A stretch of 64,000 nucleotides of DNA from an uncultured beta proteobacterium (GCA_903821335.1 CAIJKV010000220.1:1-64000), one strand, 5' to 3'. Positions 24,734-27,975 are shown, numbered from the stretch's first letter. A program made the numbers and translations. The notes: a model not told the origin generated them from the letters alone.

Positions 24734-26704
24734 ATGACCGAATCGTCCAAACTGTCGCAGCAAGCGCTTGATCAACGACTTGGCTTTGCCGAGGATGACG
24801 ACCAGCCCATTCGCTACATGCAGCGCACACGCGACTGGTATCTTGGCTTGGGTTACGGTAAGCCTTATCGTTGGGCGCATTTTTCTGACGCGCCTTTTAC
24901 GTCGCTGCGCAAACCATTAAAAGACACTTGTGTCGCAATCGTGACCACTGCCGCACCCTATCAGCCCGACAAAGGCAATCAAGGGCCGGGATCACTTTAC
25001 AACTCGGCGGCAAAGTTTTTTACGGTCTATTCGGGTGATACAACCATAGACCATGATCTGCGGGTTTCACATGTTGCCATTGATCGCAAGCACACAAGCA
25101 TGCAAGACTGCAATACTTGGTTTGCGTTACCCATGCTTCGTGCGTTGGCGCGAGACAACGTCATCGGCAGCATCGCACCATTTTTTTATGGAGCGCCAAC
25201 CAATCGTAGTCAGCGCCACACCATCGAAGTCGATGCCCCAGAGGTATTGAAACGTTGCCGAGCCGATGGTGTCGAAGCAGTCGTGCTGATCCCGAATTGC
25301 CCAGTGTGTCATCAGACCCTGAGCCTGATCGCCCGTCACCTTGAGGCAGGCGGCATCCCGACTGTATTGATAGGCTGTGCGAAAGACATTGTCGAGCATT
25401 GTGGTGTACCAAGGTTTTTATTTAGCGACTTTCCCTTAGGTAACGCGGCAGGAAAACCGCATGACCTGGCCTCGCAACGCCAAACCTTAGAACTTGCGCT
25501 CAACGTCCTGGAGGCCGCACCGGGCGCACGCACCACAATGCAATCGCCCTTACGCTGGAGTGACTCGCACGAATGGAAACTCGATTATTCAAACATCGAT
25601 CGCGTCAGCCCGGAAGAGCTCATCAAGCTCAAGCAAGAGTTCGACCAAGGCAAAGAAGTCGCGCAGAGCGTTCGCGATCAACAGTTAACCTCGGCATTTA
25701 GAGATCTGACACACGACCATGAGGCAATCAAACAGATCCTGATTCGATTGAATCTTGCCCAAGGTACTGAAACGGTGACGGTCAAGCCACTGACGGGCGG
25801 CGTGTCTTCGAATATTTTTCACGTCACGACAAGCGGGGCGCAGTACTGCCTAAAACAGGCATTGCCTAAACTTAAAGTTGCCAAAGAATGGCTCGCCCCG
25901 GTTGACCGGGTGTTTGCTGAAATTGACTGGCTGCAGACCGCGACAAAAATTGTGCCCAAACATGTTCCGCACGTTTTAGGCGTTGATCGCGACAGCAAAA
26001 GTTTTGTCATGCAGTATCTGGGAACTGAATATCTAAACTGGAAGACAGAGCTTCTGGCAGGCCGAGTCACCCCCGGCGTTGCAGCGCAAGTCGGCCAGGT
26101 GCTTGGTCAGATCCATGCACAGACCGCACGACAGGCAGACATCGCACAACGTTTTGCCAACGATGCTACGTTCTATGCGATTCGGCTTGAGCCCTATTTG
26201 GCAGAAGCAGCTAGACAACACCCTGACCAGAGTGCTCATTTAAAGGCCCTGATCAAACGAACGCAAAGTCATCCAAAGGTATTAGTTCACGGTGACGTGA
26301 GCCCAAAGAATATTTTGCTTGGCCCCGCAGGCCCTGTTTTGCTAGATGCCGAATGTGCCTGGTATGGAGATCCGGCCTTTGATGTTGCCTTTTGCCTGAA
26401 TCATCTTTTCTTGAAAACCGCACACAACCCTCAAGCCGGTGTCACCTTGATGAACGACGCACAGGACTTGTTGACGGCCTACCTAAAACACGTCACATGG
26501 GAACCCGAGCACGAACTTGAGCACAGAATCGTGACCTTGTTACCCGGGCTGATGCTTGCGCGGGTTGACGGAAAATCGCCTGTTGAATACCTGAATAGTG
26601 ATCGCGGTGCGCGCGTGCGCAAGCTTGCCATCGAATTTCTAAACCAAACAAATATTTCTTTTTCAATGATCCACGCGCAATGGGGTCAGGAGTTCAAGCA
26701 ATGA
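24734..26704 (+). CDS. Fusion: N-terminal glycine/sarcosine/betaine reductase component B-like domain + C-terminal aminoglycoside phosphotransferase (APH/MtnK-like) kinase domain
   Basis: N-term VSHVAIDRKHTSMQDCNTWFALPMLRALARDNVIGSIAPFFYGAPTNRSQ...VLIPNCPVCHQTLSLIARHLEAGGIPTVLIG; C-term LTGGVSSNIFHV...YCLKQALPKLKV...VLVHGDVSPKNILLGPAGPVLLDAECAWYGDPAFDVAF (HxDxxxxN). Confidence 0.75.
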   Translation: MTESSKLSQQALDQRLGFAEDDDQPIRYMQRTRDWYLGLGYGKPYRWAHFSDAPFTSLRKPLKDTCVAIVTTAAPYQPDKGNQGPGSLYNSAAKFFTVYSGDTTIDHDLRVSHVAIDRKHTSMQDCNTWFALPMLRALARDNVIGSIAPFFYGAPTNRSQRHTIEVDAPEVLKRCRADGVEAVVLIPNCPVCHQTLSLIARHLEAGGIPTVLIGCAKDIVEHCGVPRFLFSDFPLGNAAGKPHDLASQRQTLELALNVLEAAPGARTTMQSPLRWSDSHEWKLDYSNIDRVSPEELIKLKQEFDQGKEVAQSVRDQQLTSAFRDLTHDHEAIKQILIRLNLAQGTETVTVKPLTGGVSSNIFHVTTSGAQYCLKQALPKLKVAKEWLAPVDRVFAEIDWLQTATKIVPKHVPHVLGVDRDSKSFVMQYLGTEYLNWKTELLAGRVTPGVAAQVGQVLGQIHAQTARQADIAQRFANDATFYAIRLEPYLAEAARQHPDQSAHLKALIKRTQSHPKVLVHGDVSPKNILLGPAGPVLLDAECAWYGDPAFDVAFCLNHLFLKTAHNPQAGVTLMNDAQDLLTAYLKHVTWEPEHELEHRIVTLLPGLMLARVDGKSPVEYLNSDRGARVRKLAIEFLNQTNISFSMIHAQWGQEFKQ

Positions 26705-27975
26705 GTCGTATCAAACACGTACACGCCCGACGCATCTGGGATTCTCGCGGACGCCCCACGGTCGAAGTCGATATCATCACCGAGTCAGGCGCCTTGGGTC
26801 GTGGCATTGCACCGGCCGGGGCGTCTCGCGGCACCCGCGAAGCGATTGAACTGCGCGACGGCGGAACACGCTTTGGCGGGCTCGATGTCCTGCACGCCGT
26901 CCAGGGGATTCAACAAGAAATTGCCCCCGCATTGGTTGGTCTGGAGGTCGCAGACCAAACCAAACTTGATGCGATCTTAATAGCGCTGGATGGTACTGCA
27001 GATAAATCACGACTAGGCGGCAACGCACTCATTGCCACCTCTTTAGCTGCATTGCATGCGGCTGCAGCGCAGGCGCAATTGCCGTTATGGCGCTATCTTT
27101 CTAACGACCGCCCGGTGCAACTTCCCTTGCCTCAGGTTCAGATTTTTGGTGGCGGCGCCCATGCAGATCGCCGCGTCGATGTACAAGATTTTATGGTGAT
27201 CGCCACGGGTGCTCGCAGTTTCGTAGAGGCCATGGAAATGACTGCAGAGGTATACCGACACGCCGGTCTGCTGATGAAAAAACGTGGCGCGTCACAAGGT
27301 ATCGCTGACGAAGGCGGTTGGTGGCCTGCGTTTGCGCACAACGAAGAGGCGTTAGATGTCTTGGTGATGTCCATCGAAGCTGCTGGCTTCGTACCAGGTC
27401 AAGATGTCAGCATCGCCTTGGACATTGCCGCCTCAGAGTTTGGTCAAAATGGGCGCTACACGCTAGGCCTCGAGAAAATGGAACTCGATACCGATGGCTT
27501 AATTGAAAAACTGTTGAGATGGATCGACAAATATCCGATCGTTTCAATTGAAGACCCGGTCGCAGAAGACGACGCTAAAGGGATGATCGCGTTTACGAAC
27601 GCTGTGAATGGACGCGTGCAGGTCGTGGGCGACGATTATCTGGTGACTAACGCAAAGTTGGTGCAAGAGGCTGCGAAACAAAAGGCCTGCAATGCAGTTC
27701 TAATTAAGCCGAACCAGGCTGGCACGATAACTGAAACACTCAGTGCCTTGACGGCTGCGCAAGAAGCAGGATATGCGACGATCGTTTCTGCACGTTCAGG
27801 TGAAACTGAAGATGTGGCGATTGTTCATCTCGCCACAGGCTGGAACGCCGGACAATTAAAGGTCGGTTCGTTTGCTCGCTCAGAGCGCATGGCCAAGTGG
27901 AATGAAGGGATCCGCGTTGAGACGACGGCGCCTCATCCACAAGGCTTTGCATGGCGGGCGTTACAGCGAATTTAA
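26701..27975 (+). CDS. Enolase superfamily protein, diverged phosphopyruvate hydratase paralog
   Basis: RIWDSRGRPTVEVDI...APAGASRGTREAIELRDGG...DEGGWWPAF...IVSIEDPVAEDD...VVGDDYLVTN...LIKPNQAGTITETL...SARSGETED. Overlaps the preceding stop (ATGA). Confidence 0.88.
   Translation: MSRIKHVHARRIWDSRGRPTVEVDIITESGALGRGIAPAGASRGTREAIELRDGGTRFGGLDVLHAVQGIQQEIAPALVGLEVADQTKLDAILIALDGTADKSRLGGNALIATSLAALHAAAAQAQLPLWRYLSNDRPVQLPLPQVQIFGGGAHADRRVDVQDFMVIATGARSFVEAMEMTAEVYRHAGLLMKKRGASQGIADEGGWWPAFAHNEEALDVLVMSIEAAGFVPGQDVSIALDIAASEFGQNGRYTLGLEKMELDTDGLIEKLLRWIDKYPIVSIEDPVAEDDAKGMIAFTNAVNGRVQVVGDDYLVTNAKLVQEAAKQKACNAVLIKPNQAGTITETLSALTAAQEAGYATIVSARSGETEDVAIVHLATGWNAGQLKVGSFARSERMAKWNEGIRVETTAPHPQGFAWRALQRI

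What the first reader, a model, noticed from the sequence alone, without database searches (positions are those of the whole stretch)
24734..27975. Two-gene module: GrdB-like reductase domain fused to an APH/MtnK-like kinase, overlapping an enolase paralog
Seen in sequence: one 656-aa ORF joins an N-terminal domain resembling glycine/betaine/sarcosine reductase component B (VSHVAIDRKH...PNCPVCHQTLSLIARHLEAGGIPTVLIG, with a CPVC motif) to a C-terminal small-molecule kinase domain with intact HGDVSPKN and an N-lobe CLKQALPKLKVAKEW that recalls methylthioribose kinase. The stop overlaps the start of an enolase homolog (ATGA), implying translational coupling. Inference: a dedicated pathway in which a hydroxylated or sulfur/amine-containing small molecule is phosphorylated and then dehydrated by an enolase-type reaction, with the GrdB-like domain doing redox or C-N/C-S chemistry. 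I know of no described pathway combining these three activities.
Basis: partly seen in the sequence, partly recalled or inferred. Interest (0 to 1): 0.88.

Follow-up and report, generated by a model that had tools for sequence, protein, structure and literature searches.

The report
Obligate kinase–altered-enolase gene pair
The sequence carries a widespread but undescribed two-enzyme unit, a small-molecule kinase always paired with a second, altered enolase, that probably phosphorylates an unknown hydroxy acid and then splits off its side group to make PEP or a PEP-like compound; databases currently label the second enzyme as ordinary enolase.

Summary
In detail: a 656-aa ORF (24734-26704) joins a PrdB/GrdB-like domain (CPVC at the Sec position of selenoprotein relatives) to an intact kinase closest in fold to methylthioribose kinase, and overlaps (ATGA) an enolase paralog (26701-27975). 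The genome also has a normal enolase. Kinase plus enolase is the core: in 104 kinase loci from bacteria and haloarchaea an enolase paralog is present in 101 (the other three end at contig ends), and in 339 sampled species both genes occur in the same five genomes and nowhere else. All 98 paralogs aligned share E168D and H373A/G (yeast numbering), at the C3-OH end of the enolase site, while metal ligands, phosphate ligands and K345/K396 are kept. Eighteen of 21 genomes already own a known glycerate 2-kinase, and all 21 a normal enolase. Best reading: a dedicated phosphorylate-then-eliminate module acting on an unidentified (2R)-2-hydroxy acid other than glycerate; neighbours (D-2-hydroxyacid dehydrogenase, PEP carboxylase, TRAP/TTT transporters) suggest PEP or an analogue as product. 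The PrdB-like domain is a clade-specific add-on (5 of about 100 loci). Substrate unknown.

The parts
24734..25663 (+). PrdB/GrdB-like domain (aa 1-310 of the fusion), Cys version
   Evidence: TIGR04483 E 2.9e-24 on this piece alone; AlphaFold pLDDT 89, no match in PDB at E<=0.001
25298..25309 (+). CPVC motif (C189-x-x-C192)
   Evidence: first Cys aligns with an in-frame TGA (selenocysteine) in two relatives, L112 and L113
25703..26704 (+). MTRK/APH-type small-molecule kinase domain (aa 324-656) with stop codon
   Evidence: AlphaFold pLDDT 94.7, best PDB match A. thaliana MTR kinase 2pyw, TM 0.84
26288..26311 (+). kinase catalytic loop HGDVSPKN
   Evidence: invariant or nearly so in 28 aligned relatives
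26701..26704 (+). ATGA stop/start overlap, translational coupling
   Evidence: sequence; the same -4 overlap in 51 of 93 same-strand kinase/enolase pairs
26701..27975 (+). enolase paralog with altered active site
   Evidence: TIGR01060 481 bits; second enolase of the genome; on the paralog side of the tree
27187..27189 (+). codon for Asp at the position of yeast enolase Glu168
   Evidence: D in 98/98 paralogs, E in 21/21 canonical enolases
27790..27792 (+). codon for Ala at the position of yeast enolase His373
   Evidence: A/G in 98/98 paralogs, H in 21/21 canonical enolases

Best explanation
The kinase domain and the enolase paralog are one obligate two-step module. The kinase (MTRK fold) transfers phosphate from ATP to the 2-hydroxyl of a (2R)-2-hydroxy carboxylate that carries a group at C3 other than the plain CH2OH arrangement of glycerate. 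The remodelled enolase then binds the 2-phosphate and the carboxylate through the usual two Mg2+, abstracts the C2 proton and expels the C3 group, giving PEP (favoured) or a C3-substituted PEP, so that the phosphate spent is kept in the product. A D-2-hydroxyacid dehydrogenase, when present, makes the hydroxy acid from a 3-substituted pyruvate; otherwise it is imported (TRAP/TTT) or released by a hydrolase. In the window's clade a Cys-type PrdB-like redox domain has been fused to the kinase; its role is unknown. Shown: linkage, conservation, residue pattern. Inferred: the chemistry. Unknown: the substrate.
For: Linkage: 101 of 104 kinase loci hold the enolase, the other three stop at contig ends; 51 pairs overlap by 4 bp; one record is a kinase-enolase fusion (P0090). 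In 339 species the kinase is in 5 genomes and the five best-scoring enolases for the paralog profile (>=624 bits, next 585) are in the same 5, side by side; of the lower-scoring enolases that could be read all have HRSGET. Kinase and paralog distances correlate at r=0.80, kinase and canonical enolase at 0.47, in 20 genomes. Active site: S39, H159, D246, E295, D320, K345, R374, S375, K396 kept in 98/98, E211 in 96/98, while E168D, H373A/G, N155G/S and T397V/I separate all paralogs from all canonical enolases, also in haloarchaea. K345 is the base and E211 the acid in enolase, and residues equivalent to E168, E211, K345, R374 and S375 contact 2-PGA (PMC4450660). Not 2-PG: 20/20 further genomes with the pair have a canonical enolase, and 18 of 21 (own genome included) have a known glycerate 2-kinase family. 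PEP and 2-hydroxy acid: D-2-hydroxyacid dehydrogenase in 30 of 104 loci, 22 of 31 copies directly next to the pair (hypergeometric P 6e-14); PEP carboxylase in four loci, one checked as genuine (1125 bits); TRAP or TTT transporters; sulfopyruvate-decarboxylase-like genes in L070.
Against: No substrate identified and no biochemical data. Neighbourhoods are diverse (extradiol dioxygenase/FAH sets, sugar-acid clusters in haloarchaea, C1-like genes), so specificity may differ between subgroups and the product may be larger than PEP in some. Retention of K345 with changes only on the acid side is compatible with, but does not prove, a different C3 group. Two divergent plasmid paralogs have E211K. 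The loci are related, so P values are indicative only.
Confidence: 0.58

Rival explanations
1. Dedicated D-glycerate route: hydroxypyruvate reductase, a new type of glycerate 2-kinase, an ordinary-function enolase and PEP carboxylase turn hydroxypyruvate into oxaloacetate, as in part of the serine cycle. The enolase changes would be neutral or regulatory.
For: D-2-hydroxyacid dehydrogenases of the glycerate-dehydrogenase/PGDH type beside the pair; PEP carboxylase in Rhizobium, Pararhizobium and Cupriavidus loci; in L061 the pair lies among genes that look like C1 metabolism (by eye).
Against: Housekeeping enolase and known glycerate kinases are already there; a glycerate kinase would not need its own enolase in every genome; strictly conserved E168D and H373A/G at the C3-OH end of the site.
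Confidence: 0.2
2. ATP-dependent dehydratase for sugar acids: the kinase phosphorylates C2 of a 2,3-dihydroxy (aldonic) acid and the enolase removes C3-OH from a substrate with a longer chain at C3, yielding the enol phosphate of a 2-keto-3-deoxy acid that aldolases or FAH-type hydrolases then cleave.
For: Pair in operon with FAH resembling 2,4-didehydro-3-deoxy-L-rhamnonate hydrolase plus SDR and sugar ABC transporters and no dehydratase seen close by (L085, L086, L095); HpaI-type aldolase and hydratase in enterics; haloarchaeal clusters with galactonate dehydratase or HpcH aldolase. A larger C3 pocket fits.
Against: Gives no role for PEP carboxylase; many pairs stand without aldolase or hydrolase; haloarchaeal clusters have other dehydratases.
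Confidence: 0.17
3. One reading: one three-activity pathway in which the PrdB-like domain does essential redox or C-N/C-S chemistry on the same molecule.
For: PrdB-like gene next to or fused with the kinase in five related loci and in P0002-P0004.
Against: Absent from about 95% of loci with the pair; PrdB-like genes occur alone elsewhere.
Confidence: 0.05

Closest known systems
Enolase (phosphopyruvate hydratase, EC 4.2.1.11)
   Same: Both enolase domains, Mg ligands, phosphate ligands, K345, K396, H159; E211 in 96 of 98
   Different: E168D, H373A/G, N155G/S, T397V/I; always a second enolase; always beside the kinase; separate branch of the tree
5-methylthioribose kinase (MtnK)
   Same: Fold (TM 0.84 to 2pyw) and N-lobe sequence; HGD catalytic loop
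   Different: 79 bits against a cut-off of 275; about 15-18% identity; partner is an enolase
D-proline reductase PrdB / glycine reductase GrdB family
   Same: Homologous domain; CxxC where the family has UxxC
   Different: Cys instead of Sec; far below the PrdB cut-off (83 of 300 bits); no pyruvoyl partner (PF09338) found in the genome; fused to a kinase
Serine-cycle segment hydroxypyruvate to oxaloacetate (Hpr, glycerate 2-kinase, enolase, PEP carboxylase)
   Same: Same set of enzyme types in some Rhizobium and Cupriavidus loci
   Different: Kinase family and enolase variant are different; normal versions coexist

Membership tests
Enolase (EC 4.2.1.11) | Enolase N and C domains | tested here: met
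   PF00113, PF03952, TIGR01060 481 bits
Enolase (EC 4.2.1.11) | Metal, phosphate and base residues (S39, D246, E295, D320, R374, S375, K345, K396, H159) | tested here: met
   98/98
Enolase (EC 4.2.1.11) | E168 and H373 | tested here: not met
   D and A in the window; D 98/98 and A/G 98/98 in the family, E and H in 21/21 canonical
Enolase (EC 4.2.1.11) | Is the genome's housekeeping enolase | tested here: not met
   Canonical enolase at G000:C132; 20/20 other genomes likewise
Enolase (EC 4.2.1.11) | Converts 2-phosphoglycerate to PEP | not testable with these tools
   needs enzyme assay
Methylthioribose kinase | MTRK fold | tested here: met
   Foldseek 2pyw TM 0.84, E 5e-18
Methylthioribose kinase | Equivalog score above cut-off (275 bits) | tested here: not met
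   79.1 bits
PrdB/GrdB | UxxC/CxxC redox motif at the homologous place | tested here: met
   CPVC aligned with UPVC of L112 and L113; family motif UXXC in PMC1088965
PrdB/GrdB | Equivalog score for PrdB (300 bits) | tested here: not met
   83-86 bits
PrdB/GrdB | Pyruvoyl partner subunit (PrdA/GrdE) | tested here: inconclusive
   no PF09338 hit in the genome, but the control did not ring
Glycerate 2-kinase | Member of a known glycerate kinase family (PF02595 or PF13660) | tested here: not met
   neither family matches the fusion; the known families sit elsewhere in 18/21 genomes
Glycerate 2-kinase | Phosphorylates D-glycerate at O2 | not testable with these tools
   needs enzyme assay

The most novel reading that the evidence does not exclude
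A previously undescribed, horizontally spread pathway step in bacteria and haloarchaea: an MTRK-like kinase and a distinct branch of the enolase family together perform an ATP-driven, phosphate-conserving beta-elimination that turns 3-substituted 2-hydroxy acids into PEP, with the enolase annotated everywhere as housekeeping phosphopyruvate hydratase.
Probability: 0.45. Interest if true: 0.85.

Novelty: new variant of a known kind. Interest (0 to 1): 0.7.

Why it matters
Enolase is treated as a one-reaction enzyme in annotation. Here a separate branch with a changed catalytic pocket, tied without known exception to its own kinase, is being labelled phosphopyruvate hydratase. If it has its own substrate, it is a new entry into central metabolism (possibly straight to PEP), a new function in the enolase family, and a source of wrong glycolysis assignments. 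The pair is compact, so the substrate can be found with a coupled PEP assay.

Tried and rejected
L-glycerate as substrate was considered (unusual product of L-sugar acids), but the frequent partner is a D-isomer-specific dehydrogenase and K345 is kept, so it was set aside. Sulfolactate (sulfite as leaving group) was considered because of TTT/TRAP transporters, TauE-like genes next to Ramlibacter pairs and sulfopyruvate-decarboxylase-like genes in L070; it remains possible, but support is thin. Mimosine-like N-linked compounds were considered for the Rhizobium loci with extradiol dioxygenase; the paper search gave no link and those papers were not opened. Paper searches for a described kinase-enolase module found nothing, within an open-access library only. 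The PrdB-like model has no solved structural relative. Louvain clustering of raw ORFs mixed antisense frames and was replaced by codon-usage gene calling. The Ramlibacter EVE/TauE neighbours look like fixed local synteny rather than function.

Full report
What is in the window. ORF 24734-26704 (+) encodes 656 aa. Residues 54-271 match D-proline reductase PrdB (TIGR04483, E 1.7e-23, 83 bits against a cut-off of 300) and, more weakly, GrdB-type models; residues 349-559 match Pfam APH and the MTR kinase model is hit as well. The stop codon overlaps the start of the next gene in ATGA (26701-26704); that gene, 26701-27975, is an enolase homolog (481 bits to TIGR01060). The genome has another enolase on a different contig, with the higher Pfam score, so this is a paralog.

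The N-terminal domain. It is a Cys version of a selenoprotein family: in two relatives (L112, L113) an in-frame TGA aligns with the first Cys of CPVC. The PrdB family was reported earlier with a UXXC motif and Cys homologs (PMC1088965). The domain folds confidently in prediction (pLDDT 89) but has no solved structural relative. No pyruvoyl partner (PF09338) was found in the genome, though the control for that search was silent. Relatives are fused to, or called together with, acyl-CoA synthetases, NUDIX and other domains. Near the kinase-enolase pair it appears only in the window and L003-L006, as a separate overlapping gene in L003-L005 and fused in L006, the window and P0002-P0004. Among 339 species, PrdB-like genes are in 7 genomes and the kinase in 5, with only two genomes having both, and only the window's genome having them linked. 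It is an accessory, not the core.

The kinase. The domain is predicted at pLDDT 94.7 and is closest to plant and bacterial 5-methylthioribose kinases (TM 0.84 to 2pyw; a sequence profile also finds 2olc first). HGDVSPKN, LLDAE and a C-terminal LARVDGKSPVEYL block are conserved. The score to the MTR kinase model is far below its cut-off, so it is MTRK-like, not MTRK.

The linkage. A scan of GTDB representative genomes found at least 580 kinase relatives; the best 80 loci were kept, and 33 plasmid records, including Rhizobium, Rhodococcus, Azospirillum, Enterobacter and haloarchaea, hold relatives. With own gene calling on 104 kinase loci, 101 contain an enolase of this type; L009, L067 and L074 end just behind the kinase. 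Of 100 pairs measured, 87 have the order kinase-enolase, 6 the reverse, 7 lie on opposite strands, and 51 overlap by exactly 4 bp. P0090 is a single-chain kinase-enolase fusion. The reverse test also holds: scanning 339 species of the class with a profile of the paralogs, the five best enolases (624-718 bits; next 585) are in exactly the five genomes that have the kinase, and adjacent to it. Of the next 25, those whose motif could be read all have HRSGET. Distances of kinase and paralog correlate at r=0.80 in 20 genomes, against 0.47 for kinase and canonical enolase.

The enolase is a different class by sequence. All 20 further genomes tested carry a canonical enolase besides the paralog (in one it appears in two pieces). 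In a tree, 28 paralogs and 21 canonical enolases fall on the two sides of one branch (100/98 support); the root is not known, so this shows separation, not ancestry. Ninety-eight paralogs keep S39, H159, D246, E295, D320, K345, R374, S375 and K396, and 96 keep E211; every one has Asp at 168 and Ala or Gly at 373, and residues 155 (G/S for N) and 397 (V/I for T) also separate the groups completely (first seen). The paper read here states that K345 is the base, E211 the acid that lets hydroxide leave, S39 a ligand of the second Mg, and that residues equivalent to E168, E211, K345, R374 and S375 contact 2-PGA (PMC4450660). That H373 lies at the same C3-OH end of the site, and that E168Q and H373 mutants of yeast enolase are impaired, is from my own knowledge of the yeast enzyme and was not checked here. 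The pattern, parts that hold phosphate and carboxylate kept and the C3 side opened, suggests a substrate that is a 2-phospho carboxylate with a different group at C3. This is inference.

Why not simply glycerate. If the kinase made 2-phosphoglycerate, the housekeeping enolase would finish the job and no dedicated enolase would be needed in every genome. Eighteen of 21 genomes with the pair already have a known glycerate 2-kinase family: DUF4147 in 11, PF02595 in 8, one with both. This makes D-glycerate less likely but does not exclude it.

Hints to the pathway. The commonest operon neighbour is a D-isomer-specific 2-hydroxyacid dehydrogenase (17 of 140 neighbour proteins); it is found in 30 of 104 loci and 22 of 31 copies touch the pair (P 6e-14 by hypergeometric count, loci not independent). 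PEP carboxylase lies in the same cluster in Rhizobium, Pararhizobium and Cupriavidus; the one scored is genuine (1125 bits). FAH hydrolases with SDRs accompany the pair in Roseibium, Paracoccus and Sinorhizobium, with sugar ABC transporters in the first two; an extradiol dioxygenase, FAH, alcohol dehydrogenase and CMD set accompanies it, in whole or part, in Rhizobium, Cupriavidus, Paraburkholderia, Rhodococcus and Sphingobium; TRAP transporters in Azospirillum and other alphaproteobacteria; a tricarballylate-type symporter, a hydratase and an HpaI-type aldolase in enterics; sugar-acid genes in haloarchaea. Several Ramlibacter, Kaistia and Caballeronia loci show the pair with no obvious metabolic partner, so two enzymes can suffice. 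Together this points to a 2-hydroxy acid, imported or made from a 3-substituted pyruvate, going to PEP or a relative; the contexts are too varied to name it, and subgroups may differ.

Verdict. The finding is real, and the kinase-enolase half is more interesting than reported; the three-activity pathway is not supported. The unit counts as a new variant: a distinct enolase branch with an obligate MTRK-like kinase and no described function in the papers I could search.

Noticed in passing
17772-19547 (+): One 591-aa ORF joins a PhnN ribose 1,5-bisphosphokinase domain (173 bits, above cut-off) to a thymidine/AMP-phosphorylase-type domain; together they could turn nucleotides into PRPP.
   Followed up: partly
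28527-28928 (-): TctC receptor fragment covering only the first quarter of the family model, probably a decayed gene next to the module.
   Followed up: no
33452-34060 (+): ORF begins like a polyphosphate kinase 2 (IFEGRDGAG) but diverges after about 75 residues; looks truncated or recombined. By eye only.
   Followed up: no
L088 and L101: Enterobacter plasmids carry a very divergent kinase/enolase pair (E211K in the enolase) in what looks like a biosynthetic cluster; in L088 with a D-2-hydroxyacid dehydrogenase, aminotransferase, iron-containing redox enzymes and a nucleotidyltransferase.
   Followed up: partly
L061:2272-15031: The pair sits among genes that by eye resemble corrinoid methyltransfer and formate-tetrahydrofolate ligase genes, beside a PhyH oxygenase and an ICL/PEP-mutase-family protein.
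   Followed up: partly
L070:3208-7594: Sulfopyruvate-decarboxylase-like alpha and beta genes directly upstream of kinase, enolase and D-2-hydroxyacid dehydrogenase.
   Followed up: partly
L112, L113: PrdB-like genes with in-frame TGA at the first motif position, i.e. likely selenoproteins, in two genomes of the same class as the window.
   Followed up: partly
L004, L006, L051, L041: MAG records titled Bordetella parapertussis (and one Klebsiella pneumoniae) hold such loci; the titles look like wrong labels.
   Followed up: no
19582-22480 (-): A TPP enzyme near benzoylformate decarboxylase and a malate/lactate-type dehydrogenase lie divergent from the module; no evidence that they belong to it.
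   Followed up: no
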